Shown: positions 32,944-59,592, counted from the first letter of the stretch. The stretch is DNA of 64,000 nucleotides from Planctomycetota bacterium (GCA_003671275.1 QWPB01000024.1:62001-126000), one strand, 5' to 3'. A program made the numbers and translations. The notes: generated by a model from the letters alone, not told the origin.

Positions 32944-33021
32944 GGGCAGGCAGGTGGGAGAGCACTCAACGGGGGAGGTGTTTTAGTCGGTACATCGAGG
33001 TGGCATTCCTCGGAAACCAGT

Positions 33022-34720: not shown

Positions 34721-35223
34721 GAGCGAGTCCTCTCGCGATCACGGCATACGGTCTCGATAAAACTCCGCAGATTGCCGATTAGCTCCGGTGAAGCTTCGGA
34801 CGAGATTCGATTCGCAGGGGTGGTACTCTCAAACTGATCGAGCAGAGTCGATAGCTCGGACTCATCTTGAGCGACCTGCACCATCCGTCGCGAACCAAAC
34901 CGGTTCGCCGTTGCCAGCTGGTGATCGTTGCGATGTTCTCCACAGCTGGCCTTTCTCGGCAGGACGAAGACGGGCTTTCCGATTTCCAGAGCTGAGAGAA
35001 TCGTCCCGATCCCGGCGTGAGCCACGACGAGGTCGCACTTCTCCAGGTGACGGCGAAACTCGGCGGGAGGCATCATTCGCTTCCAGTGAAGATGCTGGGG
35101 GACATAGCTTCCCTCTGCGATTTGAGCGACGATTTCGCCACGAGGGGCAATGGCCGCCCATTCATCGACCGCTCGAATCAATCGGTCAAACGGCAATTGA
35201 GTACCGACAGCGACGAAGATCAT
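34717..35223 (-). CDS. PssE/Alg13-like glycosyltransferase subunit
   Basis: MIFVAVGTQLPFDRLIRAVDEWA, CDLVVAHAGIGTILSALEIGKPVFVLPR. Confidence 0.87.
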   Translation of the reverse strand: MIFVAVGTQLPFDRLIRAVDEWAAIAPRGEIVAQIAEGSYVPQHLHWKRMMPPAEFRRHLEKCDLVVAHAGIGTILSALEIGKPVFVLPRKASCGEHRNDHQLATANRFGSRRMVQVAQDESELSTLLDQFESTTPANRISSEASPELIGNLRSFIETVCRDRERTRS

Positions 35224-35708
35224 ACGACGGCCCCCCAAAAGTGTGGTCCCGCAGGCGTGACGGGACCATGTACGACTTGGTGATTGGTGGCCAACTCCGC
35301 CCACTGCGTCAGCGTGACATCGGCGTGAGGAACCGCTAGCCGGGCGGAAAGCGATAGCTGTTCCGCATTTGCAATGCTGTCCAGAAAGATGGTTTTGGCT
35401 CCGATGAGCCTGCCAAAGCGAATGGCCCAGTATCCGGACGCCGCACCGGTGGTGATAACGATGTCTGGCTGAATTCGTAGAACAAGCCAGCCCACTCGCA
35501 CCAGGAGCCACAACATTCGCAGTGGAGTCTTGGCATTGGCGTCCGGGAGCAGCCGGACCTCAGCCGGGGCCACTCCCAAGCTGTCGCACGGACCGACCGT
35601 TGCGTAGGTCACGTGGTGCCCGGCGAAGGCCGATTGCAGACGCTGCATCTGAATCCAATGGCCTCCTCCCGAGGCGACTGCCAGTATTCGTGCGGTAGGC
35701 ATGTTCAT
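35220..35708 (-). CDS. PssD/Alg14-like glycosyltransferase subunit
   Basis: ILAVASGGGHWIQMQRLQSAF, DIVITTGAASGYWAIRFGRLIGAKTIFLDS. Confidence 0.87.
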   Translation of the reverse strand: MNMPTARILAVASGGGHWIQMQRLQSAFAGHHVTYATVGPCDSLGVAPAEVRLLPDANAKTPLRMLWLLVRVGWLVLRIQPDIVITTGAASGYWAIRFGRLIGAKTIFLDSIANAEQLSLSARLAVPHADVTLTQWAELATNHQVVHGPVTPAGPHFWGAVV

Positions 35709-36946
35709 CTCTCGGCTCCTGCAAGTTGTTCCGCGTGCGAGGCGATGACGTCGTGGTACAACTCCGTCATCCAGTGAATCTTGTTTTCCCAGAGTCCGAT
35801 GTCACAGGCCCGCTCGCGGGCTCCGGTTGACAGTCGAGCCAGTCGTTCTGGATCGTTTGCGAGTTGTCGGACGGCCACAGCCAGATCACGGGCCAGCTGT
35901 TGTGGTTCGTTCGCCGGAACGCGGATTCCCGAGTTCTGATCTACGACATATCCCGGTCCGCCCCGGTCCGTGGTGATCACCGGTAGACCATGCCCCATCG
36001 CTTCGAAAACGACGTTCCCACTGGGCTCCCGGAAGCTGGGAAAGAGGAAAATGTCCGCTTGGCAGTAGAAGCGTTCCACTTCGGCCCGCAGCTGACGACC
36101 GTGAAATCGCACACGATCTCCAAGTTGCAACTCGTGAGCCAGTCGACGACAGGCGTCCAGATCTTCCCCGGCACCGATGGCATCGAGCGTGACGTGAGGC
36201 AGATCCTTCAGCTGCGCCATCGCTCGAATTGCATCCCGCAGCCCCTTGGTTCTGACCACACGTCCCACATAAAGAAGCCTGATTCCAGAATGTTCGCGTG
36301 GTGCAAGCCGGGGCATGAGTTGATGGATTCCGGTCTCCGCCGCCATCTCAAACCGCTGAATAGGAATCGACCGCAGCAGGTCTGCCACATAAGGTGCCAC
36401 TCCGATCACAACATCCGCCTGGGCGTAACTCCTTCGCAGCCACGGGTCCATCCGCAGACGCAAGCGATCCATGTTGCGAAAGGAGGTGTACCAGGGGGCA
36501 CCCCGACATTCGTCGGTAAAGCCCATCGGGGTCTCCAGGCTGCCTGCCAGCGGCCCCAGGATGAACGGCACCCCCAGTCCCACCGCCGGACAGGGATAAC
36601 GCAAGGCCAGCGGTCCGATCTGATGAATCACATCAAACGAACGCCCCGCGTGCAGGGTCATTTTGATCCAGCGTCGAGCTTGTCGATAGAACCGCACATA
36701 ACCGGGTTTGAGCATGCTGGAGACACGCTCCATCCGCCCTCCCCAGTGCAGGTCGGGCCAGGAAACGACTTCAATATTCGGAAGCTGTTCCTGGATGGCC
36801 TGTCGCCCGGGCCGCTGAAGCGTCAGTAGTGTGACATCGCAGTGCCGGGCGAGCCCCCGGACCCACTGAAAGCAACTCCACGATTCGCCAACGTCCGTGC
36901 CATCGCATCCGGGGGCCAGGATCAGGATTGAGGGTCGACCGTTCAT
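35705..36946 (-). CDS. Glycosyltransferase family 4
   Basis: GIRLLYVGRVVRTKGLRDAIRAMAQL, LFPSFREPSGNVVFEAMGHGLPVITTDRGGP. Confidence 0.9.
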   Translation of the reverse strand: MNGRPSILILAPGCDGTDVGESWSCFQWVRGLARHCDVTLLTLQRPGRQAIQEQLPNIEVVSWPDLHWGGRMERVSSMLKPGYVRFYRQARRWIKMTLHAGRSFDVIHQIGPLALRYPCPAVGLGVPFILGPLAGSLETPMGFTDECRGAPWYTSFRNMDRLRLRMDPWLRRSYAQADVVIGVAPYVADLLRSIPIQRFEMAAETGIHQLMPRLAPREHSGIRLLYVGRVVRTKGLRDAIRAMAQLKDLPHVTLDAIGAGEDLDACRRLAHELQLGDRVRFHGRQLRAEVERFYCQADIFLFPSFREPSGNVVFEAMGHGLPVITTDRGGPGYVVDQNSGIRVPANEPQQLARDLAVAVRQLANDPERLARLSTGARERACDIGLWENKIHWMTELYHDVIASHAEQLAGAER

Positions 36947-37986
36947 CGTGCAAAGCTCTCCCGGATCGGCCACAGACTGCCAAAGTCGCGAACGACCCCG
37001 CCGAAATGATCCCGCCGTTTCCTCGCCGAAACGCTGCGTCCCACAAGGGAGGCCACGGCCCAGAACACCCAGCGAGTCATTTGAAAACTGGCCAGAATGA
37101 GCCACGCCAGCACAGCCGCCAGTCGTCCGCCATGCTTGCGATGCAGGCGGATCAAGCCATCGGTCAGCATCAGGTCACGACGATGACTGCACTGACGACT
37201 GCTCAGGCTGCCATAGTGTGTGATCGTGCCCACCGGCGAGAACCGCAGAATCCATCCGCCATTTGTAAACCGACGACACCAGTCGGTCTCTTCGCCATAA
37301 CAGAAGAAGCTTTCGTCCAGCATGCCGATGTCACGAATCGCTGCAGTTCGGCAGAACATGTAACAGCCGGTGATGGTCTCCACGTCCCGCTCGCTGTTCC
37401 GGTCCCAATCGAGCATCTGGTACCGCCCCAGGAAGGCTGGCCAGCGGCACCGAAACAGGCCGCTCGACAGCAGTACCAGGTTCCACAACGTCGGATATCG
37501 ACCACAGGTCAGCTGAACCGAGCCATCGCCATTCAACACTCGACAGCCCAGGGCCCCGACTTCAGGGGCCTGTTCCATGTATTCCCAGGATCTCCGCAGC
37601 ACCTGTTTGTGGATGACCGTATCCGGATTGAGCAGCAGGGTATACTGGCCCGTGGCCTGGGCGATGGCCTGGTTGTTGGCCGCCGCAAAGCCGACGTTGG
37701 TCGAATTGGCGATCAACCGGAACTGCGGAAATTCGTGGGCCACCATCTCCGGTGATCCGTCCGTCGACGCATTGTCGACAACGAATACCTCGGCCTTCAT
37801 CGCCCCCAGTCCGAGGGCCACCGACTGCAAACATTCGCGCAGCACATCCCGCGTGTTCCAGCTCACGATAATCACGGACAGATCGAGCACGGTCGGTATT
37901 CTCCCAAGGGGAAGAGTGCTGGTTCGCAACCGCTGATGAATGAGGTTCAGACTCTTCGGAACGGGGTAATGCAAACGCGGTGCCAC
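36943..37986 (-). CDS. Glycosyltransferase family 2 (rhamnosyltransferase-like)
   Basis: LSVIIVSWNTRDVLRECLQSV, VFVVDNASTDGSPEM, GCYMFCRTAAIRDIGMLDESFFCYGEETDWC. Confidence 0.9.
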   Translation of the reverse strand: MAPRLHYPVPKSLNLIHQRLRTSTLPLGRIPTVLDLSVIIVSWNTRDVLRECLQSVALGLGAMKAEVFVVDNASTDGSPEMVAHEFPQFRLIANSTNVGFAAANNQAIAQATGQYTLLLNPDTVIHKQVLRRSWEYMEQAPEVGALGCRVLNGDGSVQLTCGRYPTLWNLVLLSSGLFRCRWPAFLGRYQMLDWDRNSERDVETITGCYMFCRTAAIRDIGMLDESFFCYGEETDWCRRFTNGGWILRFSPVGTITHYGSLSSRQCSHRRDLMLTDGLIRLHRKHGGRLAAVLAWLILASFQMTRWVFWAVASLVGRSVSARKRRDHFGGVVRDFGSLWPIRESFAR

Positions 37987-38001
37987 TCGCAGAAAGAGGC
38001 A

Positions 38002-39327
38002 TTAACAGGGTTGCCAGCGTCTCGTGGGATGCCGCATGCCCCGTTCCTTCTCAAGTTGAGAAGCAGAACGAGAAGAGGGGACTGGCCGCTTTGTGGACTC
38101 GGGCAATGCCAGCCAGGCTCCGGAACCCAATAGAAAGGCAAACAGACAGAACAACGCGTTCCAGTAATGCACCGTCGACCCGGCAATGCTCAAACCGATC
38201 ATGCAGACCAGCCAGGCCGCCCGTGAGTTCTGCGTATCTTTCGACGGGTAATTCCTGTTCGACATGCTGACGGACAACCACAGCAACGCTCCCGCCAGAG
38301 CCAGAAACGCCGGTAGCCCGTACCGTACAGCGGTTGCTAACCAGAAGTTGTCCATGCTGCCACTGACCATCCACGATGGCCGCTCCCAATCACCCAGGCC
38401 AATCCCCAGCAGAGGGTGCCGGGCGATTTCCGCCGTCCCACAGTCAAAGATTCGAATCCGGTTGTACCCCGTCCCGGGGCTGAACGTGAAATAGGTCAGA
38501 AAGACCTTGATCGGGCTGCGATTAGAACTGAGGCTGATGACGGTCCAGATGGCGGCAAAGATCCCTCCCAGAATCGACCAGCGGCGACCGATATTGCGAG
38601 TCATCAGATCCCAGCCCACCAGAAAGATCTGAATCCCCAGTGCCGAAAACGCCCCGGCGGACAGCGAGAAGAACGTCCCTCCCAGAGTGAACATTGTCCG
38701 GGCCCACTTCGATCGAAACCGCTTGTGAGGTACGGTCAGGTAGAACGCCAGTGCAAAAGAAGACGCACAGAAGATTCCGAACAGGATCGGATGATCGAAC
38801 GACCCGTAGGCCCGGTGCAGTCCCATCCGCGGCTCAATCGGCACCAGTGATGGGCCACCGAGAATGGCTCGCGAAGTCTCTCGGATAAAATGTTTTCCCG
38901 TAACGGACTCGATCAGGGCAAACCCCGACATGATCACGACGATCATGAACATCAAGCGGCTCATCGCGGCGAAATCCGCAGAGTTCCGGATATAGCATCG
39001 GCCCAGCAGGTAGGCCCCGAGAGCCTCGATAAAGTAGATCCCGCCGGTCTCTAACCCCTGGCCAACACCGGCGTAGTTGATCAGTGCCAGCATTGACCAG
39101 AATGAGTGCAGGATGACGAGCCAGTCCGCACCATGAACGGAACCGACCTTACCCGAAAATAGCTTGCGGATGCTGGCAAGAAACGACAATAGCAGCACAA
39201 TTCGATACGCGGACAGCCTTAGCCCCCCCGCATTCACCGAGAGTTCCGGAGGCGTCGCCAGAGCCAGAATGAACAGTGCGGCAGGCCACGCCAGCCCCCC
39301 CAGTCCCGTTTTTTTATCCGAGGACAT
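38002..39327 (-). CDS. O-antigen polymerase/ligase-like membrane protein
   Basis: Polytopic protein with Wzy/ligase-like periplasmic region (RHPLLGIGLGDWERPSW). Confidence 0.8.
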   Translation of the reverse strand: MSSDKKTGLGGLAWPAALFILALATPPELSVNAGGLRLSAYRIVLLLSFLASIRKLFSGKVGSVHGADWLVILHSFWSMLALINYAGVGQGLETGGIYFIEALGAYLLGRCYIRNSADFAAMSRLMFMIVVIMSGFALIESVTGKHFIRETSRAILGGPSLVPIEPRMGLHRAYGSFDHPILFGIFCASSFALAFYLTVPHKRFRSKWARTMFTLGGTFFSLSAGAFSALGIQIFLVGWDLMTRNIGRRWSILGGIFAAIWTVISLSSNRSPIKVFLTYFTFSPGTGYNRIRIFDCGTAEIARHPLLGIGLGDWERPSWMVSGSMDNFWLATAVRYGLPAFLALAGALLWLSVSMSNRNYPSKDTQNSRAAWLVCMIGLSIAGSTVHYWNALFCLFAFLLGSGAWLALPESTKRPVPSSRSASQLEKERGMRHPTRRWQPC

Positions 39328-39330
39328 GGG

Positions 39331-40668
39331 CTAGACCTTTGTGAGACAATCCATCGGCTGCGAATTGGATTCACGGAGCCCCACCGCCGTTTCCAGCGGT
39401 GAACGCACGACGCGCTCGGGCTGATTTAGATGCCTTCGAAACACGCGTGAGATCGTTCCGGTGATCGATTGAATCCGTTCCCTCCAACTAAGCCGTCGCC
39501 ACCATGCGGCGAACAACTTCATCTGCCGATGTTTTGGAGCAGCGATCCCCGCGAACCAGGAAGCGGTGACGCGTCCCCAGATGGTTCCGCGAGTCCGCTG
39601 TAGATGTTGTTGTGAGGCGGCGAGAACCCAGGACTCGCGACGTTCCAGCTCAAGGTATCCCTGGGCCACTGCTTCCCGGACGAGTTGCCGTCCACGTTCC
39701 GTCCGGACCAGGACGAGTGAACGTCCCGGTTCACCGGGCTGCACGGGGCGATACCAGGGATCGCCGACCGACACGTCAGCCGACTCACCGGTATGATCGG
39801 CACAGACATGGCATCGCCACTGGCGAAATTTCTGAAGTGTGTTACCCCACCCGTCTGCATAGGAAACGGAGTTCGTCACGCTTTCGCCGGTCTCGGGGTC
39901 CCGCCAGCGGGCGGTGATCTCTCCCGGCCAGCCGTGGCCACGATAGCGAATCTCTTCAATCTGACCGGGGTCTTGAGCTCCCAGTCGCCGGGCCAGTTCG
40001 ATGGTCCCCTGCAACGATGGCGTGCCAGCGCAGAAGATCGCAATGGTCAGTCCCAGATTGCGATCCAGATCTGGACGCTCGGCCCGGGCCTTGGTGACGG
40101 CGGCCACATCGCAGGGCTTTCCGATGAAGACACACGGAGCGGAAGCCGCTTCAATCTGTCCAAGTTCTTCGCATGGACTGGCGGGGGAATACCGGGAACC
40201 GGCCCCACGAATGAGAGAGGCTCGGTTGTGACTGAGAACGGTCTCGTTCAGTAATGGTGCATCCTCGCGAGCCCGCACGTGCAAAGCCCCCGCCATTGCC
40301 CCCTGCTCCACGCAGTAGAGTGCCAGACCGGTGACCACCCCCCCACTTGACCCGCGGTAGCGAATCTCCGAGTCGATCGCGTTCCCTTCCCAGATCTCCA
40401 GAATCGGGCCCCATTCGTCGTACAGTTCGGGATGTCCCATGCTCGGGCGGGCGGGTGCGGCAGGCCACTCGATTCCCGGGCATAAAGCGACTGCGGCTTG
40501 CAGGGCGATGGTGTCGGACTCGGCGGACTCTATGGGTACAGGGCGGCGGGCCAGGTCGACCGTGTCGACCATCTGAAGCTTGTCAGGACACGCGAAAGCA
40601 CAGGCCCCGCATCCCATGCACAGATGCGATTGAACTATCTGCAGAATGTTGATTGGATTCGAACTCAT
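39331..40668 (-). CDS. Coenzyme F420 hydrogenase/dehydrogenase beta-subunit family protein
   Basis: Single 4Fe-4S motif CMGCGACAFACP; GSSGGVVTGLALYCVEQG, FIGKPCDVAAVTKA, CHVCADHTGESADVSVGDPWYR. Confidence 0.9.
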   Translation of the reverse strand: MSSNPINILQIVQSHLCMGCGACAFACPDKLQMVDTVDLARRPVPIESAESDTIALQAAVALCPGIEWPAAPARPSMGHPELYDEWGPILEIWEGNAIDSEIRYRGSSGGVVTGLALYCVEQGAMAGALHVRAREDAPLLNETVLSHNRASLIRGAGSRYSPASPCEELGQIEAASAPCVFIGKPCDVAAVTKARAERPDLDRNLGLTIAIFCAGTPSLQGTIELARRLGAQDPGQIEEIRYRGHGWPGEITARWRDPETGESVTNSVSYADGWGNTLQKFRQWRCHVCADHTGESADVSVGDPWYRPVQPGEPGRSLVLVRTERGRQLVREAVAQGYLELERRESWVLAASQQHLQRTRGTIWGRVTASWFAGIAAPKHRQMKLFAAWWRRLSWRERIQSITGTISRVFRRHLNQPERVVRSPLETAVGLRESNSQPMDCLTKV

Positions 40669-40671
40669 CGA

Positions 40672-42114
40672 TCAGTTTCCCGTTTTCACTAGAGCAGGGC
40701 ATCGTCCTGGTTCATGATGAACCATTGCCGCAAATCGCTGGCGAACCAATCCCCATCCCATTTGAACCAGGGTGAGCAGGGCGACGACGGCTAGAACCAG
40801 TCGTCCTGCCAGGGGCCAGTCGACTGCCTGGGTCGCTACTCCCGCACTCAACAATCCAATGGCAAACAATCCGCTCACCCGAATCAAAGGCTTGACCGAC
40901 AACGAGTGGCGATGCCGTAACAGCCCGATCGATCCGATCAGGGCCATCACCTCACCCCCGCAACCGCAAGCCGTAATCGCCTCCAGCCCTCCGCCGGACA
41001 TTCCAGCAACGGCAGCAGCGGCGATGCCCAGAAAGCGAAGCACATTCGATGCCAACGGATTGAAACTATCCGCCCGCGACAACGCGGCCAGGCTGGGTAC
41101 CGCCCGCAGGATGCGTAATCCTTGCATCACCCCCAGCGCACTCATCACGGCGACTGGTACTGGAAACTCCGGCCCATAGAGCATTTTGATGACCGGGTTT
41201 CCCAAGGTGAGAATCCCCAGCGAAAACACCAAACCCACTCCACCCAGTATTTTAGTGATCGATTCAAGACGCTGATCGAAGGTGACGGGATCACCCTGGC
41301 AGCGCGCGAGTGATGGCAGCCAGGCGGTGGATGCGATCCGTGAGATCAGCAGTGCGGGAACCATCGTCATCTGAAAAGCAACGGCATATCGCCCCAAGTC
41401 CGCAGCGGTCGCTGAAGCGAGGACCACCAGCCGGTCCCCTTGAAAAGCGCCAAACATGATGACGCCGTTGATGGCCAGCGGCCATCCGAATCGCAGCAGC
41501 CGTCCCGCGACATCACGTCCCATTCCCAGCCGGTAAGGCCGCTGCGCCACCCCGTGTGATACCCCCACCAGTACGACCGTCTGCAGGACGCTGACCCATA
41601 CCAGAACGGCGGCGCTCCTCATCCAGGGGGCTAGTAGGAATGCGGCTGCGGTCGCGGTGATCGCAGCTGACAACTCCACGATCATTGTGCGGTGAAAGTC
41701 GTGGTGCCGCTGGACCCGCTTGCTGTCGAGATGCAGGAGTCCTCGAACCAGCGGGACCACTCCCAGAGCCACCATCATTCCCACAGCATCGGGCCGATTC
41801 AAATAATAACCCACGGGCAACGCCAAACCCGCCAGCAGGACCGCTGAGAACAGCCCCCGGATGATCAGCATGGAATGGGCGGTCGACTGAAACTCTTCGC
41901 GATCCCCGTCTTCCGCTTGTACCAGCAACCGGTCCGGTCCGAAATCACTGATCATGTCCAACAGGCTGAGCGTCATCGTCAGTGCGACGGCGACACCCAT
42001 TTCCGACGGCCCCAAGGCCCGTGCGAGGAGAACATTCCGGACCAGCCCCAGCCCTTCGGCACCGGCCTGTGCGGCCGCCACGTAAATAGTCGGTCGGACA
42101 CGAGCCATGCTCAC
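40672..42114 (-). CDS. Wzx-like oligosaccharide flippase
   Basis: ARALGPSEMGVAVALTMTLSLLDMISDFGPDRLLVQ; multi-TM. Confidence 0.85.
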   Translation of the reverse strand: MSMARVRPTIYVAAAQAGAEGLGLVRNVLLARALGPSEMGVAVALTMTLSLLDMISDFGPDRLLVQAEDGDREEFQSTAHSMLIIRGLFSAVLLAGLALPVGYYLNRPDAVGMMVALGVVPLVRGLLHLDSKRVQRHHDFHRTMIVELSAAITATAAAFLLAPWMRSAAVLVWVSVLQTVVLVGVSHGVAQRPYRLGMGRDVAGRLLRFGWPLAINGVIMFGAFQGDRLVVLASATAADLGRYAVAFQMTMVPALLISRIASTAWLPSLARCQGDPVTFDQRLESITKILGGVGLVFSLGILTLGNPVIKMLYGPEFPVPVAVMSALGVMQGLRILRAVPSLAALSRADSFNPLASNVLRFLGIAAAAVAGMSGGGLEAITACGCGGEVMALIGSIGLLRHRHSLSVKPLIRVSGLFAIGLLSAGVATQAVDWPLAGRLVLAVVALLTLVQMGWGLVRQRFAAMVHHEPGRCPALVKTGN

Positions 42115-43442
42115 GAACTCCGGATCTGGCGCTTGTCGGTGGTGATCGATTGAAAAATCTCATCCAGCTGATTCCGGGCCATCCGGGTGACCGCCGGAAT
42201 CTGTTTCGCCAATAGCTCTCGATCCACCTGCCGCCTCAAGAACGAGGCTTTCAATGAGGCCAGAATCGCTGCGGTATCCTGATACCGCAACTCGAAGACC
42301 TGGTGTCCCTGACCGCAGGTGGCGAACACACCGCGTGTTTTCAAACTGTACGACACGGCAGCGGTGGGGACGCCGGAACCGAGTCCTGCGATGGTACTAT
42401 GCATACGAGTGCCGCAGAACCACGCGGTCTGGCCGATTAACCACTTCAGCTCGGACGGCGTCGATTCGGGTTCCGCGATGGCCACCCGTTGCTGATGCTC
42501 TGGGCTCAGTCGGTCATAAACTTTCTGAACGGCATCGGGATCCGATTCTACCTCTCCGGAACGGGTGGTCACATGCGGTACCAGAATCACCCGGACATCC
42601 GTGCTCTGAAGCAGCCAGTCGAGAAACTCATGGACCAGAAGCGGGTAGTTGGCTTTCAGTCCAAACTGCTCCGCGGCGGGAATCGGATCGTTGTAGATCA
42701 ACCCGCTGATGTTCAGACCGACCACTTCGTGTTGCCGACGTTCTTCCGGGGATAGCCACCATTGGATTTTGGGTGACAGATTCCTGGGGGGGATGGCGGG
42801 CAATGCGAATGCCATATCGACCCCCTGCCGATGGCGGGCGGGATCGAACGCGTCCCCCAGTAGTTCCTTGAGGGCGGCAAAGCTGTCCGCGTCACGGGCC
42901 CAGGCCATGCGGGATTGCCGCACAATCTTCTCGGCGGTGGCCCGGGCTTCCGGCGAGCGGAACGGACCGTAAGTTTGTGGCAACAGAACCAGCGGACGTC
43001 CGGCCTCCAGGGCAATCAGCTTCGGCAGAACCACGCTGCGAAATCGCCGCTCGCCGTACAGATCGGTGAAGCTGTCACCAGCACTGACATCGTATACCGC
43101 ATCGGCCTCGGAGATGTCGTGGGCTGCGGAGTTCCATCGGGAATTCAACCAGGTGGCCATGCGAATTGTCCACAGGCACTCGGTCCGATAGAGACGCCGC
43201 GAGTGGACAGCTCCCCGGAGGTTGACGGTGACCCGTTCGTTGCCGAATACCACTTGATCGGGTCGCTGACCACGACCATGATCAAACACCGTGATCTTAT
43301 TCACGTTGCGGGAGTGCAAATGCCAGATCACGGAGTGACACAGCGCGGTGACTCCTCGGTTACCCGTATCCGGGCTGGCCCCAAACAGACAGACATTTCG
43401 AACTTTAGAGATGGCTTGCATAATGCCAGTTTCGAAATGCAA
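42111..43442 (-). CDS. Polysaccharide pyruvyl transferase family protein
   Basis: CLFGASPDTGNRGVTALCHSVI, GRPLVLLPQTYGPF, RMHSTIAGLGSGVPTAAVSYSLK. Confidence 0.9.
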   Translation of the reverse strand: MHFETGIMQAISKVRNVCLFGASPDTGNRGVTALCHSVIWHLHSRNVNKITVFDHGRGQRPDQVVFGNERVTVNLRGAVHSRRLYRTECLWTIRMATWLNSRWNSAAHDISEADAVYDVSAGDSFTDLYGERRFRSVVLPKLIALEAGRPLVLLPQTYGPFRSPEARATAEKIVRQSRMAWARDADSFAALKELLGDAFDPARHRQGVDMAFALPAIPPRNLSPKIQWWLSPEERRQHEVVGLNISGLIYNDPIPAAEQFGLKANYPLLVHEFLDWLLQSTDVRVILVPHVTTRSGEVESDPDAVQKVYDRLSPEHQQRVAIAEPESTPSELKWLIGQTAWFCGTRMHSTIAGLGSGVPTAAVSYSLKTRGVFATCGQGHQVFELRYQDTAAILASLKASFLRRQVDRELLAKQIPAVTRMARNQLDEIFQSITTDKRQIRSS

Positions 43443-43847
43443 CTCCCGTGCCAGTGCCTGTGAAGACGACTGTTCCTGGATCTACTCGATCGATACCGTC
43501 GACAGGCAGTTTTCAAACTGCGGGATTTCTCAGGTTGATAGTTCGGCGATCATCAACTTGAGACGCTGGTCTATATCTCTCACTCAATACTGGTAGCCTT
43601 TGCGTCTTCGCGGGGAAGTCGCGGACAAAATATCGTCACTCACGATCGCAGCCAGTCCGGCGATGCCATGAAGTTCCTGTGAGCGGGTTGCCGCGATGGC
43701 GGGGCCGTGGAATTCGAATCGATTTCCACGGGGGATCGCCTCCCGGCACAAAGCTTGCATGAGGCACTGTCATCGTGGTCTTGAATGGACTACGAGCGAC
43801 GATGGTGACTTTGGAATCTCATCCTTCTCTTGTGACTGAGTGGGTTC

Positions 43848-44510
43848 ATGGCTTCGTTGGAATCTCTCACACTGCGTCTCTGGTATGTCGTGCAGCGTGT
43901 CGTGGCAACACTCATGCTCGTCGCTCTCTCTCCATTGCTGCTGGGGTTGTTTCTACTCGTTCGGATGACATCCCGCGGCCCGGCCCTCTACTCTCAGGAG
44001 CGGCCGGGCCTTTATGGACGCTCGATCCGGGTCTGGAAAATTCGGACCATGAAGCCTGGTTCTGACCGCGATCAATCCAAAGCCCGAGGCGTGCAGAGCA
44101 GCGATCCTCAGGTCACCCCGATTGGTCGCATCTTACGACAGCTCAAATTCGATGAACTGCCCCAGCTGTGGAACATCGTACGAGGAGAGATGGCCTTTGT
44201 CGGACCACGACCGATTGCCCGTTCATTGTATGAAGAGTTGTGCCGGGAGATCCCGGGCTTCAATGAGCGATTGTCCGTGCGTCCGGGGCTGACCAATGTG
44301 GGACAAGTCTGCATCGAGGAAAACGCACAACAGGACCGCGTTATTGACGACTGGAAACTGCGATTCGAGTCGGAGAAGCATTACTTCCGGGGACGTTCGC
44401 CGGGGTATGACTGCGTGGTGATTACGATGACGATGCTATACATCCTGCGGAAGTTGTTGCGGGCGGTCCCCTGTCCCCGCTTTCTGCGAACGGGCCCGGC
44501 GTCCATGTAA
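43848..44510 (+). CDS. Undecaprenyl-phosphate sugar transferase
   Basis: GPALYSQERPGLYGRSIRVWKIRTMKPGSD, LRQLKFDELPQLWNIVRGEMAFVGPRP. Confidence 0.93.
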   Translation: MASLESLTLRLWYVVQRVVATLMLVALSPLLLGLFLLVRMTSRGPALYSQERPGLYGRSIRVWKIRTMKPGSDRDQSKARGVQSSDPQVTPIGRILRQLKFDELPQLWNIVRGEMAFVGPRPIARSLYEELCREIPGFNERLSVRPGLTNVGQVCIEENAQQDRVIDDWKLRFESEKHYFRGRSPGYDCVVITMTMLYILRKLLRAVPCPRFLRTGPASM

Positions 44511-48139: not shown

Positions 48140-48676
48140 TCAATTTCCGGAAATGGTGCCCACGACGGTGGTCGTGTAGTCCCCTTCCTGCAGCGTGCCG
48201 GGGGCCCCTGTAATAAAGGTCACGGTCAGCCGCACCTTGGCCTCACCTACCCCGTTGGCACTGACCCGTACCCGAGCATTTTCATTCCCCCGACGGTAAT
48301 CGGTGGACGAACTCGCGGTCACGACACTCCATGTGGCGGGGCCCGAATCGACTTCGGTTACCACGTCCAGCTGGACATCGCGTTTGGAAGAGGGGGTCGT
48401 TGTGTGTACAAACGCTGTTTGCGTTTCCAGCAACACCGAACAGCCCAGCGGAGAGTTACACTCGGCCAGCCATGGCTGAGGAGCAAACACCACATTGGCC
48501 GTGCCCGAGCCCGGATAGGATTGAACCATGTCCCATGGGGGAGCTGTCAAAAACAGCTTCGGATTAATTAGCACCCGATAGACCTGAGTCTGGGTTTCCG
48601 ACCAGGTCGGTGAATCGACGAGAACGCCCATGAGCAACAGCAGGAGTGCAAGCCGCTTGAGCGTCGGAATTCCCAT
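48140..48676 (-). CDS. Small secreted protein A (paralogue of those at 52.4 and 53.0 kb)
   Basis: Signal peptide; GPATWSVVTASSSTD ... GVGEAKVRLTVTFITG ... LQEGDYTTTVVGTISGN. Confidence 0.75.
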   Translation of the reverse strand: MGIPTLKRLALLLLLMGVLVDSPTWSETQTQVYRVLINPKLFLTAPPWDMVQSYPGSGTANVVFAPQPWLAECNSPLGCSVLLETQTAFVHTTTPSSKRDVQLDVVTEVDSGPATWSVVTASSSTDYRRGNENARVRVSANGVGEAKVRLTVTFITGAPGTLQEGDYTTTVVGTISGN

Positions 48677-48927
48677 GCCGATTTCCTGAGAAAGGCCCCG
48701 AAGAACAGAATCAGGTTATTCTGCTCACCCCAAGGCTACTGCAGAATCGGGATGCCCGATGCCACAAATGGGGAATCAGTCTAAAAAACGCCGGAACGCG
48801 GTTCGTGTGTGCTGCTTTTAACGCTGTGTTCCGCGAACGCACGCCTCGGATGCAAGATCCCTCGGAGGATTCGAAACAGTTCTTGTTCAGTGAGCTTCCG
48901 GGTAATAAACCACTATTTTGTAGGCGG

Positions 48928-50610
48928 TTACGGCGTTTTCGTGGGATTTCCCAGGTCGAGTTCCAGGCGTTGTTCGAGGGGCTCTTTTCCTTCTCCCGTC
49001 GGAATGATCAGCCGCGCGGTGTAATGACCGGGAGCCAGATTCGCCGGGGGCTTAAACCGAATCGACTCGCTGCCCCCGGGAAGAACCCACTTTCCGAAGC
49101 CCCCACGCACCTCGTAGGGGCGGGCCGCCTCATCCCCCAGGATCAATAAACCGTTGATCGGGAAATGCATGGTTCCGCTGTTCTTGAGTTCCACGACGAA
49201 TGCGGGATTGATCTCGCGGGCATCCCAGGTCAGCGGACTGGCAGTCAGTTCCGGAATGGAGGAGGTGGATCGGCCCAGAGCTGCCACCAGCACGGGGGTG
49301 GTCTCCAGAGGGTCGGCCCCGGCACCCTGGGTTTTGAGCCGCAAATAGCTGTACCGATGGTTATCCACTTGGGTGGTGCCAGTGAAGCTCAGGGACACTT
49401 TGCGGCGAGTGCCCGGCGGCAACGTCACCGAATCGGGACGCACGACCACCCAGTCGGCGGGGATGCCATCGATGGACTCGGAGACCAGCTGAACATCCAC
49501 GGCAGCGGTTCCCGTATTCTCCAATTGAACGACGTGGGTGCGACTGCCTCCGCGTTGCAATGAAAGTTCCACCTGAGAGGGCGAAACCAGGAGTCCCGGG
49601 GCTGCCTGAACCGTGGCGATTCCTTGTGCGGGGAAATCCCCTTCCTGAACGATGACCGGGAACCCCACCTTGACCAACACCCGGTTGTCGCCCACCAAAG
49701 ACGATTCCATGTAGTATTCACCCGGAAAGACGGCGGCATTCAGCGGGCTGATCATGCGGATGCGGGCTCCTGCCAGAATCCGTCCGATGAATTTCTGCGG
49801 CTCTTCGGTATTACTACGAACGGGCATCCAGAGCGGAAACGTCGGTCGATTCTCGCTGTTTTCGGAATGTCGGATCTGCGCCCGTAATCCAAACTCGATG
49901 GGCCCCGCGGTGGGGTTTTCCACATAGACTTGAGCCATGGGGATGCCGTTCACTTCGATCAGCTCGGCCCGCGATACCTTTAACTTGGCGGCACTTTCGG
50001 ACCGTATCCCCTGGACCGTAATGTCGCAGCGAAGCAGATACTGCGTGACGAATCGGATTCCCACACGCGGGGTGTCGGACTTGGGAGCATTCGACGGATC
50101 GGTGAGCTGCCCCGCGTCACGCACCAGGATGCCAAAGGTGTGAAACGTCGATTGCGTGTTGGGGACGCGGACTCGCCCCCGGATCACGAACTTTTCAGTC
50201 GGTTGCAGCTCCACTGCCAACGGAGTCTGGATTTCCAGTTCCTCGGGGGGAGGGACTTTCGTGTTGGCGAAAATGGTCCCGTTTTCATCCTGCGTCAGAG
50301 CGACCCGCTGGATCTCCAGCTTGACAGGTTTGCTTTCGCAGGTGATTCCGAATTCGACGGGGATCGTGCGTCCCGGTCGGGTTTCGATTCGGTTTACGAT
50401 CGGATCAATCACAAAGGCGGGACGGACCGATTCGGTAATGGTGATATTCTGGCCAGCCCGCGGAGCCGCAGGGGCCGCAGGTTTGGCCGTTGTCCCTTGC
50501 GGGAGGGGATTTCCGGCTGCGTTTTGGGGGGGCTTCTGTCCAAAACCGGGACTCGCAGCTGACAGAAAACTTGCGATAACAATCAGGAGAGCCAAGGTGT
50601 TCCGGGACAT
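48928..50610 (-). CDS. Secreted Ig-like, pilus-chaperone-like protein
   Basis: Signal peptide; repeated Ig/NEW3-like blocks (LLVSPSQVELSLQRGGSRTHVVQLENTGTAAVDVQL). Confidence 0.65.
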   Translation of the reverse strand: MSRNTLALLIVIASFLSAASPGFGQKPPQNAAGNPLPQGTTAKPAAPAAPRAGQNITITESVRPAFVIDPIVNRIETRPGRTIPVEFGITCESKPVKLEIQRVALTQDENGTIFANTKVPPPEELEIQTPLAVELQPTEKFVIRGRVRVPNTQSTFHTFGILVRDAGQLTDPSNAPKSDTPRVGIRFVTQYLLRCDITVQGIRSESAAKLKVSRAELIEVNGIPMAQVYVENPTAGPIEFGLRAQIRHSENSENRPTFPLWMPVRSNTEEPQKFIGRILAGARIRMISPLNAAVFPGEYYMESSLVGDNRVLVKVGFPVIVQEGDFPAQGIATVQAAPGLLVSPSQVELSLQRGGSRTHVVQLENTGTAAVDVQLVSESIDGIPADWVVVRPDSVTLPPGTRRKVSLSFTGTTQVDNHRYSYLRLKTQGAGADPLETTPVLVAALGRSTSSIPELTASPLTWDAREINPAFVVELKNSGTMHFPINGLLILGDEAARPYEVRGGFGKWVLPGGSESIRFKPPANLAPGHYTARLIIPTGEGKEPLEQRLELDLGNPTKTP

Positions 50611-50671
50611 GATGAGCTTTCCGAGGTTCCCTCTCTGAAGACGCCGTCGATCCTCGACGGCAGAATCTGAA

Positions 50672-51976
50672 TCAGGAGGCAGGAACCACTCGCAACACGG
50701 GAACGACAGGACTCGTCTGTGGCAGTGAAGGTGGCGGGACAGGGGCTGGCACTTCGACCGGGGCGGGCTCCTGAGTCGGGGGAACCGAAGCCGGAACTGT
50801 GATCGGAACGGGGACGACGGCGGGCTCCATCCTGAGGGGGAGGGCCTGAGGGTGAACCGTGGCCGTTGGAATCACGATGCGGGGAGAGATGAAGATGGCC
50901 ACTTCGGCATCCTGCTCCTGCTTTTCGATCTTGCGAAAGGCCGACCCGATTCCTGGCAACCCACCGAGATAGGGAATCCGATTCTCGCGATCCACGGTTT
51001 GACGCTGAACCAGTCCTCCGATCACGACCGTCTGCTGGTCTTTGACCTGCACTGTGGTTGTGACCCGTCGGCGATTGATGATGGGGAAGGGGTTGTTACC
51101 CGTGGACTGTGACGAATCCAGCGAGCGAATGTCCTCACTGACTTCCGCCTTCTCGATCGCGATTTGAACGTTGTCCCCCCGGATGGACGGGGTCAGCATC
51201 AGGCTGATGCCGGACTCGACCTTCTCAATATCCTGTCGATAGAGAAACTGGTTGTTTCCCTGATTGATGCTGAAGAAGGTGTCGCGGGCGATGGAGATTT
51301 CGGCTTTCTCCCCATCCTTCGCCATGACACGCGGGGCCGCTCGAATCGTCACATACCCTTCTCTTGCGAGAAGCTTCACAAACGCGGATGTCACTGCAAA
51401 ATCATCGAACGCATTCTTCGCACCATAAGGACTGACCTGCCCCGTGAACGAGAGCCCCGAGAGTCCGATGTTTAGCCGGTCCAGTCCATTCACCTGCAAG
51501 CCGTGGTTCCAGTCCATGCCGAACTGCAACCCCTTCTCCGGGGCCACAACACAGACAATGACCTCAATCATGATCTGCGGAATCGGTTGGTCGGCGACTT
51601 CCAACTGCTGAAAGATCTGCCGGGCGGTTTCGCTGGGAGCCTCAATGATAATGATGTTTCGTTTGTCGACGATTCGGACAAACTGAGACTGTCGGGGAGG
51701 CAGGAGTGCCAGCAGTTCCTGTGTCGACAGGTTTTGCGGTTTGTATTCCATCGCCTCCGCGATGTGCGGGAACAGATTGGACGATGGATCGTTACTGCCG
51801 ATCAGGTAGAGACTGTCTTTCTTGCGATAGACCAATCCCAGGGGCAGCAGAATTCGGCGCAGGGCCGCCTCAAACGTCTCATTCTCAATCGTACAAGTCA
51901 CATCACCACGAGCGGTGTCGTCCAGCACGACCGAGACCCCCGCCTGGGAGGCCAGCGACTGGATCGCTTCACGCAC
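50672..51976 (-). CDS. Secretin (GspD/PilQ family), C-terminal frame of an apparently frameshifted gene
   Basis: REAIQSLASQAGVSVVLDD, secretin core (VTIRAAPRVMAKDGEKAEISIARDTFF, RRVTTTVQVKDQQTVVIGGLVQR). Confidence 0.88.
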   Translation of the reverse strand: MREAIQSLASQAGVSVVLDDTARGDVTCTIENETFEAALRRILLPLGLVYRKKDSLYLIGSNDPSSNLFPHIAEAMEYKPQNLSTQELLALLPPRQSQFVRIVDKRNIIIIEAPSETARQIFQQLEVADQPIPQIMIEVIVCVVAPEKGLQFGMDWNHGLQVNGLDRLNIGLSGLSFTGQVSPYGAKNAFDDFAVTSAFVKLLAREGYVTIRAAPRVMAKDGEKAEISIARDTFFSINQGNNQFLYRQDIEKVESGISLMLTPSIRGDNVQIAIEKAEVSEDIRSLDSSQSTGNNPFPIINRRRVTTTVQVKDQQTVVIGGLVQRQTVDRENRIPYLGGLPGIGSAFRKIEKQEQDAEVAIFISPRIVIPTATVHPQALPLRMEPAVVPVPITVPASVPPTQEPAPVEVPAPVPPPSLPQTSPVVPVLRVVPAS

Positions 51977-52428
51977 ACTGTTTCCGTAAAGATGTCGTTG
52001 ACCGGCTTTTCCGCAGTGGTTGAGGCCGGAATCACGCCTCCCGGTGTTCCGCTGGATTGCTGGTGACTGATCGGATTGACTGTCCCCGGAACCGATGGAG
52101 GAGCCACACCCTGAGTGCTGGCGGGAGTGGAGGGCCCGATCATCTCCACGGGCAGAGTCTCGAGCTCCATAGGAATCGGTGCGATCGGCCCCGGTACGGT
52201 CATGGGAACCGGAAGATACTCCGGCATCGTGGAAGGCGGAATCTGGGGATGATCCATGCCGAGGTTTGCTTCCGGTTTCGCCTTGAGCGCCTCCATGTAC
52301 AGTTCTTCAATGGATCGCTCTTTCGGTCCGGGAATGGTGCGACACCCCTCAAAACCCAAGAGAGCGCACATCCCAAGAACTAAAGTCCATTTTCCAGGGG
52401 TCCACCGGCAAGGCCCGCCGATTCTCAT
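51898..52428 (-). CDS. Lipoprotein-type N-terminus of the same secretin (frame shifts near 51977)
   Basis: LVLGMCALLGFEGC lipobox-like; ends NDIFTET just before the other frame resumes VREAIQSL. Confidence 0.7.
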   Translation of the reverse strand: MRIGGPCRWTPGKWTLVLGMCALLGFEGCRTIPGPKERSIEELYMEALKAKPEANLGMDHPQIPPSTMPEYLPVPMTVPGPIAPIPMELETLPVEMIGPSTPASTQGVAPPSVPGTVNPISHQQSSGTPGGVIPASTTAEKPVNDIFTETVCVKRSSRWPPRRGSRSCWTTPLVVM

Positions 52429-52952
52429 CAGAACCCCTCCGTGATGGTGCCGATGACTGTCGCCTCGTACTCACCAGCCGCCAGGAAGGGCTGCTCATGT
52501 CCTAAAAACGTCACCGTGATACCGGCTTCACCGTTCCCTCCGAGGGAGCCCGCAGCCACCTGAGCAGTCGTTCGACCATGCGAGAAGCTGGTTCGATCAT
52601 GGGGAATGATAATGTCCCAATCCGATTTCCGACCGCGTCCCCGGATCGACAGGTCCAATGCGGCATCGACCCGAGATTTCGGATCGGAAAGGCTCTGAAA
52701 GGGCTCCAGGCTCCAGACCGTAATCGTGGGGCCGAGCGGATTGGGGGCCACCAGTGTCCAGGGCTGTTCGGGAAATACCAGTGGTCTGGTTGGATCAATC
52801 ACGACCAGATGCTGAGGAGTCCCTTTCTCGCGGATCGCAGGAGGTTGTTGCGCCCCGAGTGTGCTAAACGCTCCCCACAAAAACAGAACAGCCCCTGCCA
52901 TCCCGAAGGATCGCATGGAGCTGAGACTGTGAGTGGTGAACCGGGTATCCAT
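52428..52952 (-). CDS. Small secreted protein B
   Basis: Signal peptide; GNGEAGITVTFLGHEQPFLAAGEYEATVIGTITEGF. Confidence 0.75.
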   Translation of the reverse strand: MDTRFTTHSLSSMRSFGMAGAVLFLWGAFSTLGAQQPPAIREKGTPQHLVVIDPTRPLVFPEQPWTLVAPNPLGPTITVWSLEPFQSLSDPKSRVDAALDLSIRGRGRKSDWDIIIPHDRTSFSHGRTTAQVAAGSLGGNGEAGITVTFLGHEQPFLAAGEYEATVIGTITEGF

Positions 52953-52983
52953 ACTCTGCGTGGCATCCTTGCCATTCGGGTGA

Positions 52984-53556
52984 TTAGTTCTCGGTGATCG
53001 TACCACTGACCGTGGTCACGTATTCCCCTTCCACCACAGCGTTGATGTCGGATGCCAGGAAAGTGACCGTCACGTCGAAAGTCGCTTGTCCCACGCCATC
53101 CGAGGAGAACTGAACTGCGGCATTCCGGGCAGCGGGATCAACATTCGCAGCGTCCGTGTCCGCAGAGCCGGAAGCACTTTCCAGGGTCCAGGTCGCAGGA
53201 CCATTCTGAGTCACCTTGGAAACGGCCAGACGCCCATCCTGTGTGATGTTGTCTGTCGGGTAGTCCATGTTCAGGAACGGGGCCATTCCGAAATCGACCG
53301 TCACTCCATCCTTGACATTCCCCTTGACGGCCCAGGTTTGGGCCGTGAATGCGTAGGTGTCGTCCGTTACGGCTTCCGCAGCTTCGAGATCGGCCACCGT
53401 GTACGTTTTGAGCATTGGCTCTGTAGGAGCCACGATGTTCACGTTTTTGCCGACACTCACCGTGTACTGTTGCGAGCCCGTCGTTGCTGTATAGGCGAAT
53501 TGAGCCCCTACAACGAATGCTCCCACACCGCACAGACTCCACAGGAACTTCTTCAT
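52984..53556 (-). CDS. Small secreted protein C
   Basis: Signal peptide MKKFLWSLCGVGAFVVGAQFAYT; GPATWTLESASGSAD ... GVGQATFDVTVTFLASDINAVVEGEYVTTVSGTITEN. Confidence 0.8.
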   Translation of the reverse strand: MKKFLWSLCGVGAFVVGAQFAYTATTGSQQYTVSVGKNVNIVAPTEPMLKTYTVADLEAAEAVTDDTYAFTAQTWAVKGNVKDGVTVDFGMAPFLNMDYPTDNITQDGRLAVSKVTQNGPATWTLESASGSADTDAANVDPAARNAAVQFSSDGVGQATFDVTVTFLASDINAVVEGEYVTTVSGTITEN

Positions 53557-57293: not shown

Positions 57294-58133
57294 TCAGATC
57301 TCAGTTTCCAGAATTCGCTGGCACCAGAGATACGCCACGATATTCAGGAGCCCTGCGGCCACCAGCACCAGCTGTCCCGGGGGCTCAACGAACAGTCGTT
57401 CGACCGCAGCCGGGTCCAGGAATGCCCAGTAAAGAAACAGGATCACCGCGGGAGCCAGCGTCATATAAAAAGACGACCGGCGGGCCTGGGCCGTCTCGGC
57501 AAGGATCTTGCGTTCGAGCCGGTGCAGTTCACGAACGGAGATAGCAATTCGTTCGACGACCTCATTGAGCCGACCTCCGCTCTGGCGGCTGGCTTCCAGG
57601 GCGGCGGCGAACAACGCAAAGTTCTCACTTCGCAGCCGCTCTCGGGCTTCTTTGAGGCAGATATCCAGCGTCTTTCCCAACTGGTACTCTCCGTGAATCT
57701 GCTGGAACTCCTCGCGGATGGGCCGGGGGCACTGCATGGCCAAAACTTCCAGGGCCTGCGGTAAAGATAAGCCCGCACGGATCGCACTGGACAATGACAC
57801 CATGGCATCGGCCAGCTGATCTTCAATCCGGTCGCGTCGCCTCTGGACCAGCGTTCGCAAGACCCACGTGGGGATCGTCAACAATCCCAGAACCGCGGTG
57901 ATCGCAAAAACCGGAGCCCCAAACCCCGCCCACAGTAACCCCCCGACCGCCGCTGTGATGCTGAGCCAGCAGATCAGGTAAGTCCGCAATCGCAAGGGAG
58001 ACAACCGAATACGCCGCAGCTGAGCGGACCATCGGGATTCCAGCTGATCGAGCCAACCCTGTTGCGCCCCGATCAGAGCCCAGCCCCCCGCTGCAAAGGC
58101 GAGTCCGATCAGAATGGAGGCCAGCCAATCCAT
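57294..58133 (-). CDS. Type II secretion system F-family (TadB/TadC-like) membrane protein
   Basis: DQLADAMVSLSSAIRAGLSLPQALEVLA, EASRQSGGRLNEVVERIA; TM segments. Confidence 0.82.
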   Translation of the reverse strand: MDWLASILIGLAFAAGGWALIGAQQGWLDQLESRWSAQLRRIRLSPLRLRTYLICWLSITAAVGGLLWAGFGAPVFAITAVLGLLTIPTWVLRTLVQRRRDRIEDQLADAMVSLSSAIRAGLSLPQALEVLAMQCPRPIREEFQQIHGEYQLGKTLDICLKEARERLRSENFALFAAALEASRQSGGRLNEVVERIAISVRELHRLERKILAETAQARRSSFYMTLAPAVILFLYWAFLDPAAVERLFVEPPGQLVLVAAGLLNIVAYLWCQRILETEI

Positions 58134-58236: not shown

Positions 58237-59592
58237 TCAATCCGCCCAGACCTGCCCGGATTTGCTGGCAGGTAGTTTGGGGGCTTGTATCCGCTGAGTC
58301 GTGTTTGAGATTACCGCATCCGCGTTTAACTCGACGCCGCCAGTGAGCCCGACAATGGTCCGTCCCACACGATTGGTCGCGGCGACGGACTCGACCCCGG
58401 TCGGAACCGGGTAAGTCGGTGTGGACCATCGCGCCGCATCCCCCAGCATTTCCGGCTGCCAACCGACCGACTGGTCTAGTTGCAGTCGGCGAATCAAAGT
58501 GCAGGTTACCAGCAGATCGAACAGATTCTGCAGCTCTGCAAACGCGGGATGAGCTGCCGCCAGTTCGGGAACATGATCCGTGAACTGGCGGGCAAACTTG
58601 TCGGTTGCAAGCTTGTTCGTTGGAGCCGTTGAGCGTTCACCTTGCAGGTTGGTGAACTCGTCCTGAGCCAGTAGTTGTAGACGCTGGCCCGTCAGATGAA
58701 AGACGCTCCGGTCCGCATCCGTGTCCAGAGGTTCATAAAGGGGCATGAACCACCAGCGGCTGTAGGAATTGTCCCCAGCCCGGGTCATCGACAACTGGCT
58801 GGTCACGCCCCGAACCCGTGACGGATCTTTGCCTAGCGCGATCCGTTTCATTCGCAAGTCCGCCTCCACCAGAACCATCGCCCAATGCGAGTCGCCAGGA
58901 ACCCCCGTGACCTGTACCGTCTGTGTCCCCAACTTCATCGCCATCGTGTCGAATAGCTGCCCCACCTGATTGGGCGTGACCGACTGAGGCTGGCTGACGA
59001 AAGCGTTATAGGCGGCCAGTCCCTCTTGCGTGGGGTCGATCGAACAGGTCACGACCGTCGTGCCGCCATAGACGGTCCGCCACGCCACCAGCAGGTCTTC
59101 TAATAAGAACACAGGCCGACCACTGGCGGTCCCGCGCATGCGCCCCTGGGAATCTGGAGCAAACCCTTCGGCGGGCCCCACGATGGCCAGATCGCCCGCT
59201 TCCCGGTCAGCGACGATGTAATCAATCCGCGTTATCCCGGCGAGACATCGCTGCTCCAGGGGAAGCTCCCGACCCGCCTGCGCGGCGGCGGACATCTCCC
59301 GGTCCAGTTGTCGCAAGGAGACACGTCGCAGTTCACTGGGAACAGCCAGTCCCTCGGGCAGGTTCTCCTTGAGGAATGCCTGCTGACGCTTTCGTACGAG
59401 GGCCGCAGCTTCCGGGGGGCCAGCGATCGTTGAAACAATTCCGGCGGCATCAATGCGAATGCCTCCCACGTTGCCATTGTTGCCGTTGTTCCCATTATTC
59501 TGGGCCTCGGCACGGGCGACGAAGCCAACGACAAGGGCCAGTACCAACATTGCCTGTCGTGATACGCTGCTCGCCATGGGGCTCTCCGTCAT
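58237..59592 (-). CDS. DUF1598-like secreted protein
   Basis: Signal peptide; planctomycete-type DUF1598 pattern (GITRIDYIVADREAGDLAIVGPAEGF, WWFMPLYEPL). Confidence 0.75.
   Translation of the reverse strand: MTESPMASSVSRQAMLVLALVVGFVARAEAQNNGNNGNNGNVGGIRIDAAGIVSTIAGPPEAAALVRKRQQAFLKENLPEGLAVPSELRRVSLRQLDREMSAAAQAGRELPLEQRCLAGITRIDYIVADREAGDLAIVGPAEGFAPDSQGRMRGTASGRPVFLLEDLLVAWRTVYGGTTVVTCSIDPTQEGLAAYNAFVSQPQSVTPNQVGQLFDTMAMKLGTQTVQVTGVPGDSHWAMVLVEADLRMKRIALGKDPSRVRGVTSQLSMTRAGDNSYSRWWFMPLYEPLDTDADRSVFHLTGQRLQLLAQDEFTNLQGERSTAPTNKLATDKFARQFTDHVPELAAAHPAFAELQNLFDLLVTCTLIRRLQLDQSVGWQPEMLGDAARWSTPTYPVPTGVESVAATNRVGRTIVGLTGGVELNADAVISNTTQRIQAPKLPASKSGQVWAD

What the first reader, a model, noticed from the sequence alone, without database searches (positions are those of the whole stretch)
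48140..53556. Candidate undescribed export/surface-fibre system: secretin, chaperone-like Ig protein and three related small secreted subunits
Seen: minus-strand cluster in order small protein C, small protein B, lipoprotein/secretin, large Ig-like secreted protein, small protein A. B stop and secretin start overlap. All products have signal peptides. Established: chaperone-usher systems pair a PapD-like Ig chaperone with beta-sandwich subunits and an usher; secretins serve T2SS, T4P and T3SS. Inference: here a secretin may play the outer-membrane pore role for a chaperone-dependent set of beta-rich subunits. I saw no usher, no secretion ATPase and no type IV prepilin signal nearby.
Basis: partly seen in the sequence, partly recalled or inferred. 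Interest (0 to 1): 0.75.

Follow-up and report, generated by a model that had tools for sequence, protein, structure and literature searches.

The report
Secretin with chaperone-like surface-subunit operon
A conserved, apparently undescribed planctomycete operon pairs a dedicated outer-membrane gate (a secretin) with small secreted beta-sandwich proteins and a chaperone-like partner, suggesting a chaperone-assisted way to put fibres or protein coats on the cell surface without the usual usher.

Summary
The cluster is real and conserved. In transcription order on the minus strand it is: small protein S1 (52984-53556), small protein S2 (52428-52952), a liposecretin (50672-52428, split by a frameshift near 51980 that two sister species lack) and a 560-aa all-beta Ig protein (48928-50610). 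The third small protein, S3 (48140-48676), is a paralogue of scattered 'orphan' genes and not core. The secretin-Ig pair with small proteins holds in 13 of 14 family genomes, in six genomes of two other families and, reordered, in divergent planctomycetes. Module secretins form one clade, apart from the other secretins of the same genomes. The Ig protein appears to be two WxLIP/PapD-like two-domain units. S1-type proteins share a strand-like N-terminal extension that all eight S2-type proteins lack. S1's weak structure matches are largely pilins. No usher exists in 12 such genomes and no secretion ATPase lies near. A chaperone-assisted, secretin-gated export system for beta-sandwich surface subunits is my best reading; fibre formation, donor-strand exchange and energy source are untested. 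I found no description in the literature available here.

The parts
52984..53556 (-). S1: small secreted beta-sandwich protein (190 aa), A-type, with a conserved N-terminal extension (QxFxVxV) after the signal peptide
   Evidence: ORF and sequence; homologues first in the operon in relatives; AF2 model, first strand at residue 38; extension shared by 23 of 23 non-B members
52428..52952 (-). S2: small secreted protein (174 aa), B-type, lacking the N-terminal extension; stop overlaps the secretin start
   Evidence: B-type clade support 0.975, extension absent in 8 of 8
50672..52428 (-). Secretin gene with lipoprotein-like N-terminus, linker, N0 (STN-like), N1-like region and secretin barrel; interrupted by a frameshift near 51980 in this assembly
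   Evidence: PF00263 E 2.4e-37; frames; intact in sisters L014 and L015; own clade in the secretin tree
48928..50610 (-). Ig protein (560 aa): signal peptide and four tandem beta domains; N-half WxLIP/PapD-like, C-half ASH-type domains also related to the WxLIP-like unit
   Evidence: AF2 and Foldseek; Pfam; profile alignments
48140..48676 (-). S3: third small secreted protein (178 aa), an orphan-type paralogue, probably not part of the core operon
   Evidence: grouping with unlinked paralogues and absence downstream of Ig in sister L014

Best explanation
The operon encodes a chaperone-assisted, secretin-gated export system for small beta-sandwich surface proteins. S1 and S2 leave the cytoplasm by Sec (inferred from signal peptides). 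In the periplasm the Ig protein, built from WxLIP/PapD-like units, binds and completes or protects the incomplete S1/S2 sandwiches (inferred). The lipid-anchored secretin forms the outer-membrane channel through which they pass (inferred from its family). Outside, the N-terminal extension of each S1 completes the next subunit, giving a thin fibre, with S2, which lacks the extension, at the tip or start (inferred; the weakest step). Shown here: gene content, conserved linkage, the dedicated secretin clade, the domain relationships, the S1/S2 N-terminal difference, and the absence of an usher or a linked ATPase.
For: Conserved small-(small)-secretin-Ig layout in 13 of 14 family genomes, in two other families and, reordered, across the phylum. 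One dedicated secretin clade, one member per genome in the four genomes tested. Ig fold matches WxLIP, CfaA, CsuC, CupB2, EcpB, YadV and FimC; WxLIP is the top PDB sequence match of the family profile; WxLIP_PGBD above cut-off in relative L120, which aligns end to end with the window family. WxLIP is predicted to complete the WxL sandwich with a strand (PMC10599100). S1 matches CfaB, CS17, Fim pilins and archaeal pili, weakly. N-terminal extension in 23 of 23 non-B and 0 of 8 B-type proteins, unpaired in the S1 model. No usher.
Against: No complex prediction or experiment. The S1 model is of moderate confidence (pLDDT 75) and its matches are weak (best E 0.0016). Many Ig-fold proteins match PapD by fold, and the top Foldseek matches are ciliary ASH domains. 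No energy source is known; N0 domains usually dock on inner-membrane partners. In G007 the Ig gene is not next to the secretin. Three-gene modules have a single small protein, so S2 is not essential.
Confidence: 0.42

Rival explanations
1. A diderm analogue of the Gram-positive WxL cluster: S1/S2 and the Ig protein form a stable, non-polymeric adhesive or binding complex at the surface, and the secretin only lets the parts through the outer membrane. The Ig protein is then a structural partner, not a transient chaperone.
For: WxLIP is the closest relative by sequence; WxL clusters likewise pair small secreted proteins with WxLIP (PMC10599100); ASH-type domains are scaffold domains.
Against: No WxL domain was matched in any of 18 small proteins. 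The Ig protein ends without the C-terminal transmembrane helix of WxLIP. Small-protein structure matches are pilins, not WxL.
Confidence: 0.25
2. The secretin works with a T2SS- or T4P-type inner-membrane motor encoded elsewhere in the genome; S1/S2 are ordinary substrates or surface accessories and the Ig protein is an adaptor to the secretin N0 domain.
For: All eight genomes tested have several T2SSE ATPases; the secretin keeps N0/N1-type domains.
Against: No ATPase within 100 kb on the module contigs (some contigs are short) and the module secretin is a separate clade from the other secretins.
Confidence: 0.2
3. An envelope scaffold: the secretin ring, Ig protein and small proteins form a structural element of the planctomycete cell wall rather than an export route.
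For: ASH-type domains are common scaffold domains; pore function is not shown here.
Against: Patchy presence argues against a general envelope part; characterised secretins are export or assembly channels (own knowledge).
Confidence: 0.1

Closest known systems
Chaperone-usher pili, especially class 5 (CfaA/CfaB) and archaic Csu (CsuC with CsuA/B)
   Same: Small beta-sandwich subunits with an N-terminal extension plus a PapD-like periplasmic protein in one operon; fold matches to CfaA, CsuC and CfaB.
   Different: No usher; a secretin in its place; the Ig protein is about twice as long (four domains); subunit homology is not shown by sequence.
WxL gene clusters of Gram-positive bacteria (WxL proteins with WxLIP, DUF916-DUF3324)
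   Same: WxLIP is the closest sequence and structure relative of the Ig family; small secreted beta proteins in the same cluster.
   Different: No WxL domain, no C-terminal transmembrane helix, and an added secretin.
T2SS / type IV pilus / Tad / filamentous-phage secretins (GspD, PilQ, RcpA, pIV)
   Same: Secretin barrel with N0 and N1-type regions; pIV-like plan (PHROG match over residues 2-368); probable lipid anchor as in known liposecretins.
   Different: Separate clade; no linked ATPase, platform protein or prepilin; scores below the curated GspD, PilQ and MshL cut-offs.
Deinococcus plasmid cluster (CP058536.1, NZ_CP140100.1)
   Same: A two-domain homologue of the Ig unit beside small secreted proteins.
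   Different: A 1018-1090-aa secreted protein with SdrD_B/CarboxypepD_reg-type domains where the planctomycetes have a secretin; its nature is untested.

Membership tests
Chaperone-usher pathway | Usher (PF00577) in the genome | tested here: not met
   0 of 12 module-bearing genomes; the E. coli control matched
Chaperone-usher pathway | PapD-like periplasmic chaperone | tested here: inconclusive
   Fold matches to PapD-type chaperones; PapD_N only sub-threshold in 3 of 10 family members, best E 0.009
Chaperone-usher pathway | Incomplete Ig-fold subunits with a donor-strand N-terminal extension | tested here: inconclusive
   Extension conserved and unpaired in the model; pilin matches weak; no complex modelled
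WxL cluster | WxLIP (DUF916/DUF3324) protein | tested here: inconclusive
   Window protein below Pfam detection; divergent relative L120 above the WxLIP_PGBD cut-off; profile match to WxLIP structures E 0.002
WxL cluster | WxL domain in the small proteins | tested here: not met
   No WxL match among 18 members at E up to 10
Type II secretion system / type IV pilus | Secretin domain | tested here: met
   PF00263 E 2.4e-37
Type II secretion system / type IV pilus | Linked secretion ATPase (PF00437) | tested here: not met
   None within 100 kb on the module contigs in eight genomes, some contigs short
Type IV pilus / Tad pilus | Type IV prepilin signal in the subunits | tested here: not met
   N-termini of the aligned small proteins look like ordinary signal peptides by inspection
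Any fibre or pilus system | Subunits polymerise at the cell surface | not testable with these tools
   needs complex prediction, EM or proteomics

The most novel reading that the evidence does not exclude
A chaperone-secretin pathway: a secretin has taken the usher's place and, without an ATPase of its own, exports donor-strand-exchanging subunits held by a double WxLIP/PapD-like chaperone to build surface fibres in Planctomycetota, while in Deinococcus the same subunit-chaperone core is paired with a different large secreted or outer-membrane protein.
Probability: 0.27. Interest if true: 0.88.

Novelty: new variant of a known kind. Interest (0 to 1): 0.62.

Why it matters
If the reading holds, it is a new pairing of outer-membrane gate and chaperone for surface assembly, and it links Gram-positive WxL clusters, chaperone-usher pili and secretin systems. 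Planctomycetes carry conspicuous 12-nm and 6-nm pili-like fibres; the main paper describing them contains none of the words secretin, usher or type IV (PMC5394234). The module is too patchy to make all such fibres, but it gives a defined four-gene candidate that can be tested. It also shows a secretin in an operon without any linked T2SS, T4P or T3SS gene, so annotation by the secretin domain alone misleads.

Tried and rejected
Two separate genes (lipoprotein plus short secretin): rejected, sisters have one frame. Ancient pseudogene: unlikely, the downstream half is under purifying selection. S3 as a core subunit: rejected. Inovirus remnant, suggested by the pIV match: rejected on tree-like, phylum-wide conservation and no match of S1 in the phage collection; no phage genes noticed around. 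Link to a Tad system through the T2SSF gene at 57294-58133: rejected, no ATPase lies on this contig and no such gene was noticed beside the module elsewhere. Profile search of the small proteins in PDB gave only a C-type lectin at E 0.02, taken as chance. Promoter and terminator scans were at chance level. Deinococcus large protein as an outer-membrane barrel: a simple alternation test did not support it, left open. Literature searches for orphan secretins, planctomycete chaperone-usher systems and secretin plus PapD-like found nothing describing this.

Full report
What is there. The window lies on contig C163 of a 5.03-Mb, 198-contig planctomycete assembly; the relatives found by name are MAGs labelled Planctomycetota, Planctomycetaceae or Planctomicrobium. 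On the minus strand, in transcription order, lie S1 (53556-52984), S2 (52952-52428), a secretin (52428-50672), the Ig protein (50610-48928) and S3 (48676-48140).

The secretin frameshift. In this assembly the lipoprotein-like N-half and the secretin C-half are in different frames, joining near 51980. Both same-genus genomes have a single 668-aa frame across this point. S1, S2, Ig and the secretin C-half all show dN well below dS against the sister (dS is saturated). The break is therefore recent or a sequence error, and intact copies exist in relatives.

Conservation. The Ig protein was found in 14 of 150 family genomes, the window's own included. In 13 of these 14 a secretin of the same kind lies directly next to it, with small proteins upstream wherever the contig reaches; in G007 the Ig gene is on another contig beside an unrelated gene. 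A class-wide search with the small proteins led to six more genomes in two other families with a three-gene form, small-secretin-Ig. Phylum searches with the Ig family led to divergent members in which Ig and secretin are again close together, with small secreted proteins, in the orders Ig-secretin, secretin-small-small-Ig, small-small-Ig-secretin and small-Ig-secretin. Some of these also have a TPR protein next door. The module is thus old, variable in order and patchy.

A dedicated secretin. Twenty module secretins separate from 15 other secretins of four module-bearing genomes (support 0.92; 0.998 for the 18 without L120 and L122). Each of those four genomes has exactly one secretin of this clade, in its module. 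The plan is lipid anchor, linker, N0, one N1-type region and barrel. Matches to PilQ, GspD, pIV and RcpA structures are about equal, and scores are below the NCBIfam cut-offs for GspD, PilQ and MshL. Twelve module-bearing genomes lack PF00577 ushers. All eight genomes tested have several T2SSE ATPases, but none within 100 kb on the module contig, some of which are short; another secretin of the window genome (C146) does sit next to one.

The Ig protein. AlphaFold2 gives four tandem beta domains (pLDDT 78). Foldseek finds ciliary ASH-domain proteins first, then Enterococcus WxLIP (E about 1e-8), then many PapD-type chaperones (E about 1e-7). By sequence the window protein matches only Cep192/HYDIN-type Ig domains, but a profile of the broader family has WxLIP as its best match in all of PDB (E 0.002, N-terminal half), and relative L120 exceeds the Pfam cut-off for WxLIP_PGBD. 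Class-level and divergent Ig proteins align end to end (probability 99.6%; N-half alone 97%). A two-domain Deinococcus homologue aligns to both halves of L120 (E 6e-19 and 6e-11) and to the C-half of the class family (96.7%); the direct half-to-half alignment of the class family is weaker (45%, E 2e-4). I read the protein as two WxLIP/PapD-like units in one chain, with the duplication as the less certain part. Unrelated window proteins used as controls gave nothing. Family-invariant residues include R74, R78, T189, Y191, L193 and R194; their position recalls the two basic anchor residues of PapD chaperones, which is a lead from memory, not a test.

The small proteins. S1 and S2 belong to one family without a convincing Pfam match. 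The S1 model is a beta sandwich of moderate confidence whose first assigned strand is at residue 38; the conserved alternating stretch before it is unpaired. Foldseek matches are weak (best E 0.0016), but CfaB, CS17, Fim pilins and archaeal pili and cannulae are prominent in the top of the list. B-type proteins form a clade (0.975), and all eight lack the extension carried by all 23 other members examined. That is what a non-donating tip subunit and strand-donating shaft subunits would look like, but it is an inference. S3 belongs to a set of unlinked paralogues.

A comparative clue. On Deinococcus plasmids a homologue of the Ig unit lies between small secreted proteins and a 1018-1090-aa secreted protein with SdrD_B/CarboxypepD_reg-type domains. 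I suspect an outer-membrane barrel there, but a simple alternation test did not support it, so this stays a lead.

Mechanism. Best reading: Sec export, periplasmic capture by the Ig protein, passage through the secretin, assembly at the surface. Rivals are a WxL-like non-polymeric complex, use of a T2SS/T4P motor in trans, and an envelope scaffold. A published AlphaFold2 study reports that a WxLIP strand completes the WxL sandwich (PMC10599100), which makes strand complementation between the Ig protein and S1/S2 plausible without proving it.

Novelty. Searches of the open literature found no description; subscription papers and preprints could not be searched. The parts are of known kinds; their combination appears new.

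Noticed in passing
window 57294-58133 minus: A T2SSF-domain (TadB/TadC-like) protein without other Tad genes noticed beside it.
   Followed up: partly
window 58237-59592 minus: A DUF1598 protein (E 1.3e-23) next to the T2SSF gene; function unknown.
   Followed up: no
window 30718-44510: A run of genes that read as an exopolysaccharide locus (Wzz/tyrosine-kinase-like, glycosyltransferases, ligase-like, flippase-like, polysaccharide pyruvyl transferase-like, sugar transferase), judged by sequence only.
   Followed up: no
L107 5892-6767 (G069): An orphan small-family protein lying close to Tad-like genes; no secretin or Ig partner there.
   Followed up: partly
L066 1563-2822 (G152): The module secretin of this MAG is also split into two frames; whether this is error or real is unknown.
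   Followed up: no
L171 4969-10571 and L172 4848-10533 (Deinococcus plasmids): WxLIP-like unit beside small secreted proteins and a 1018-1090-aa secreted protein with SdrD_B/CarboxypepD_reg domains; possibly an undescribed chaperone-usher-like cluster.
   Followed up: partly
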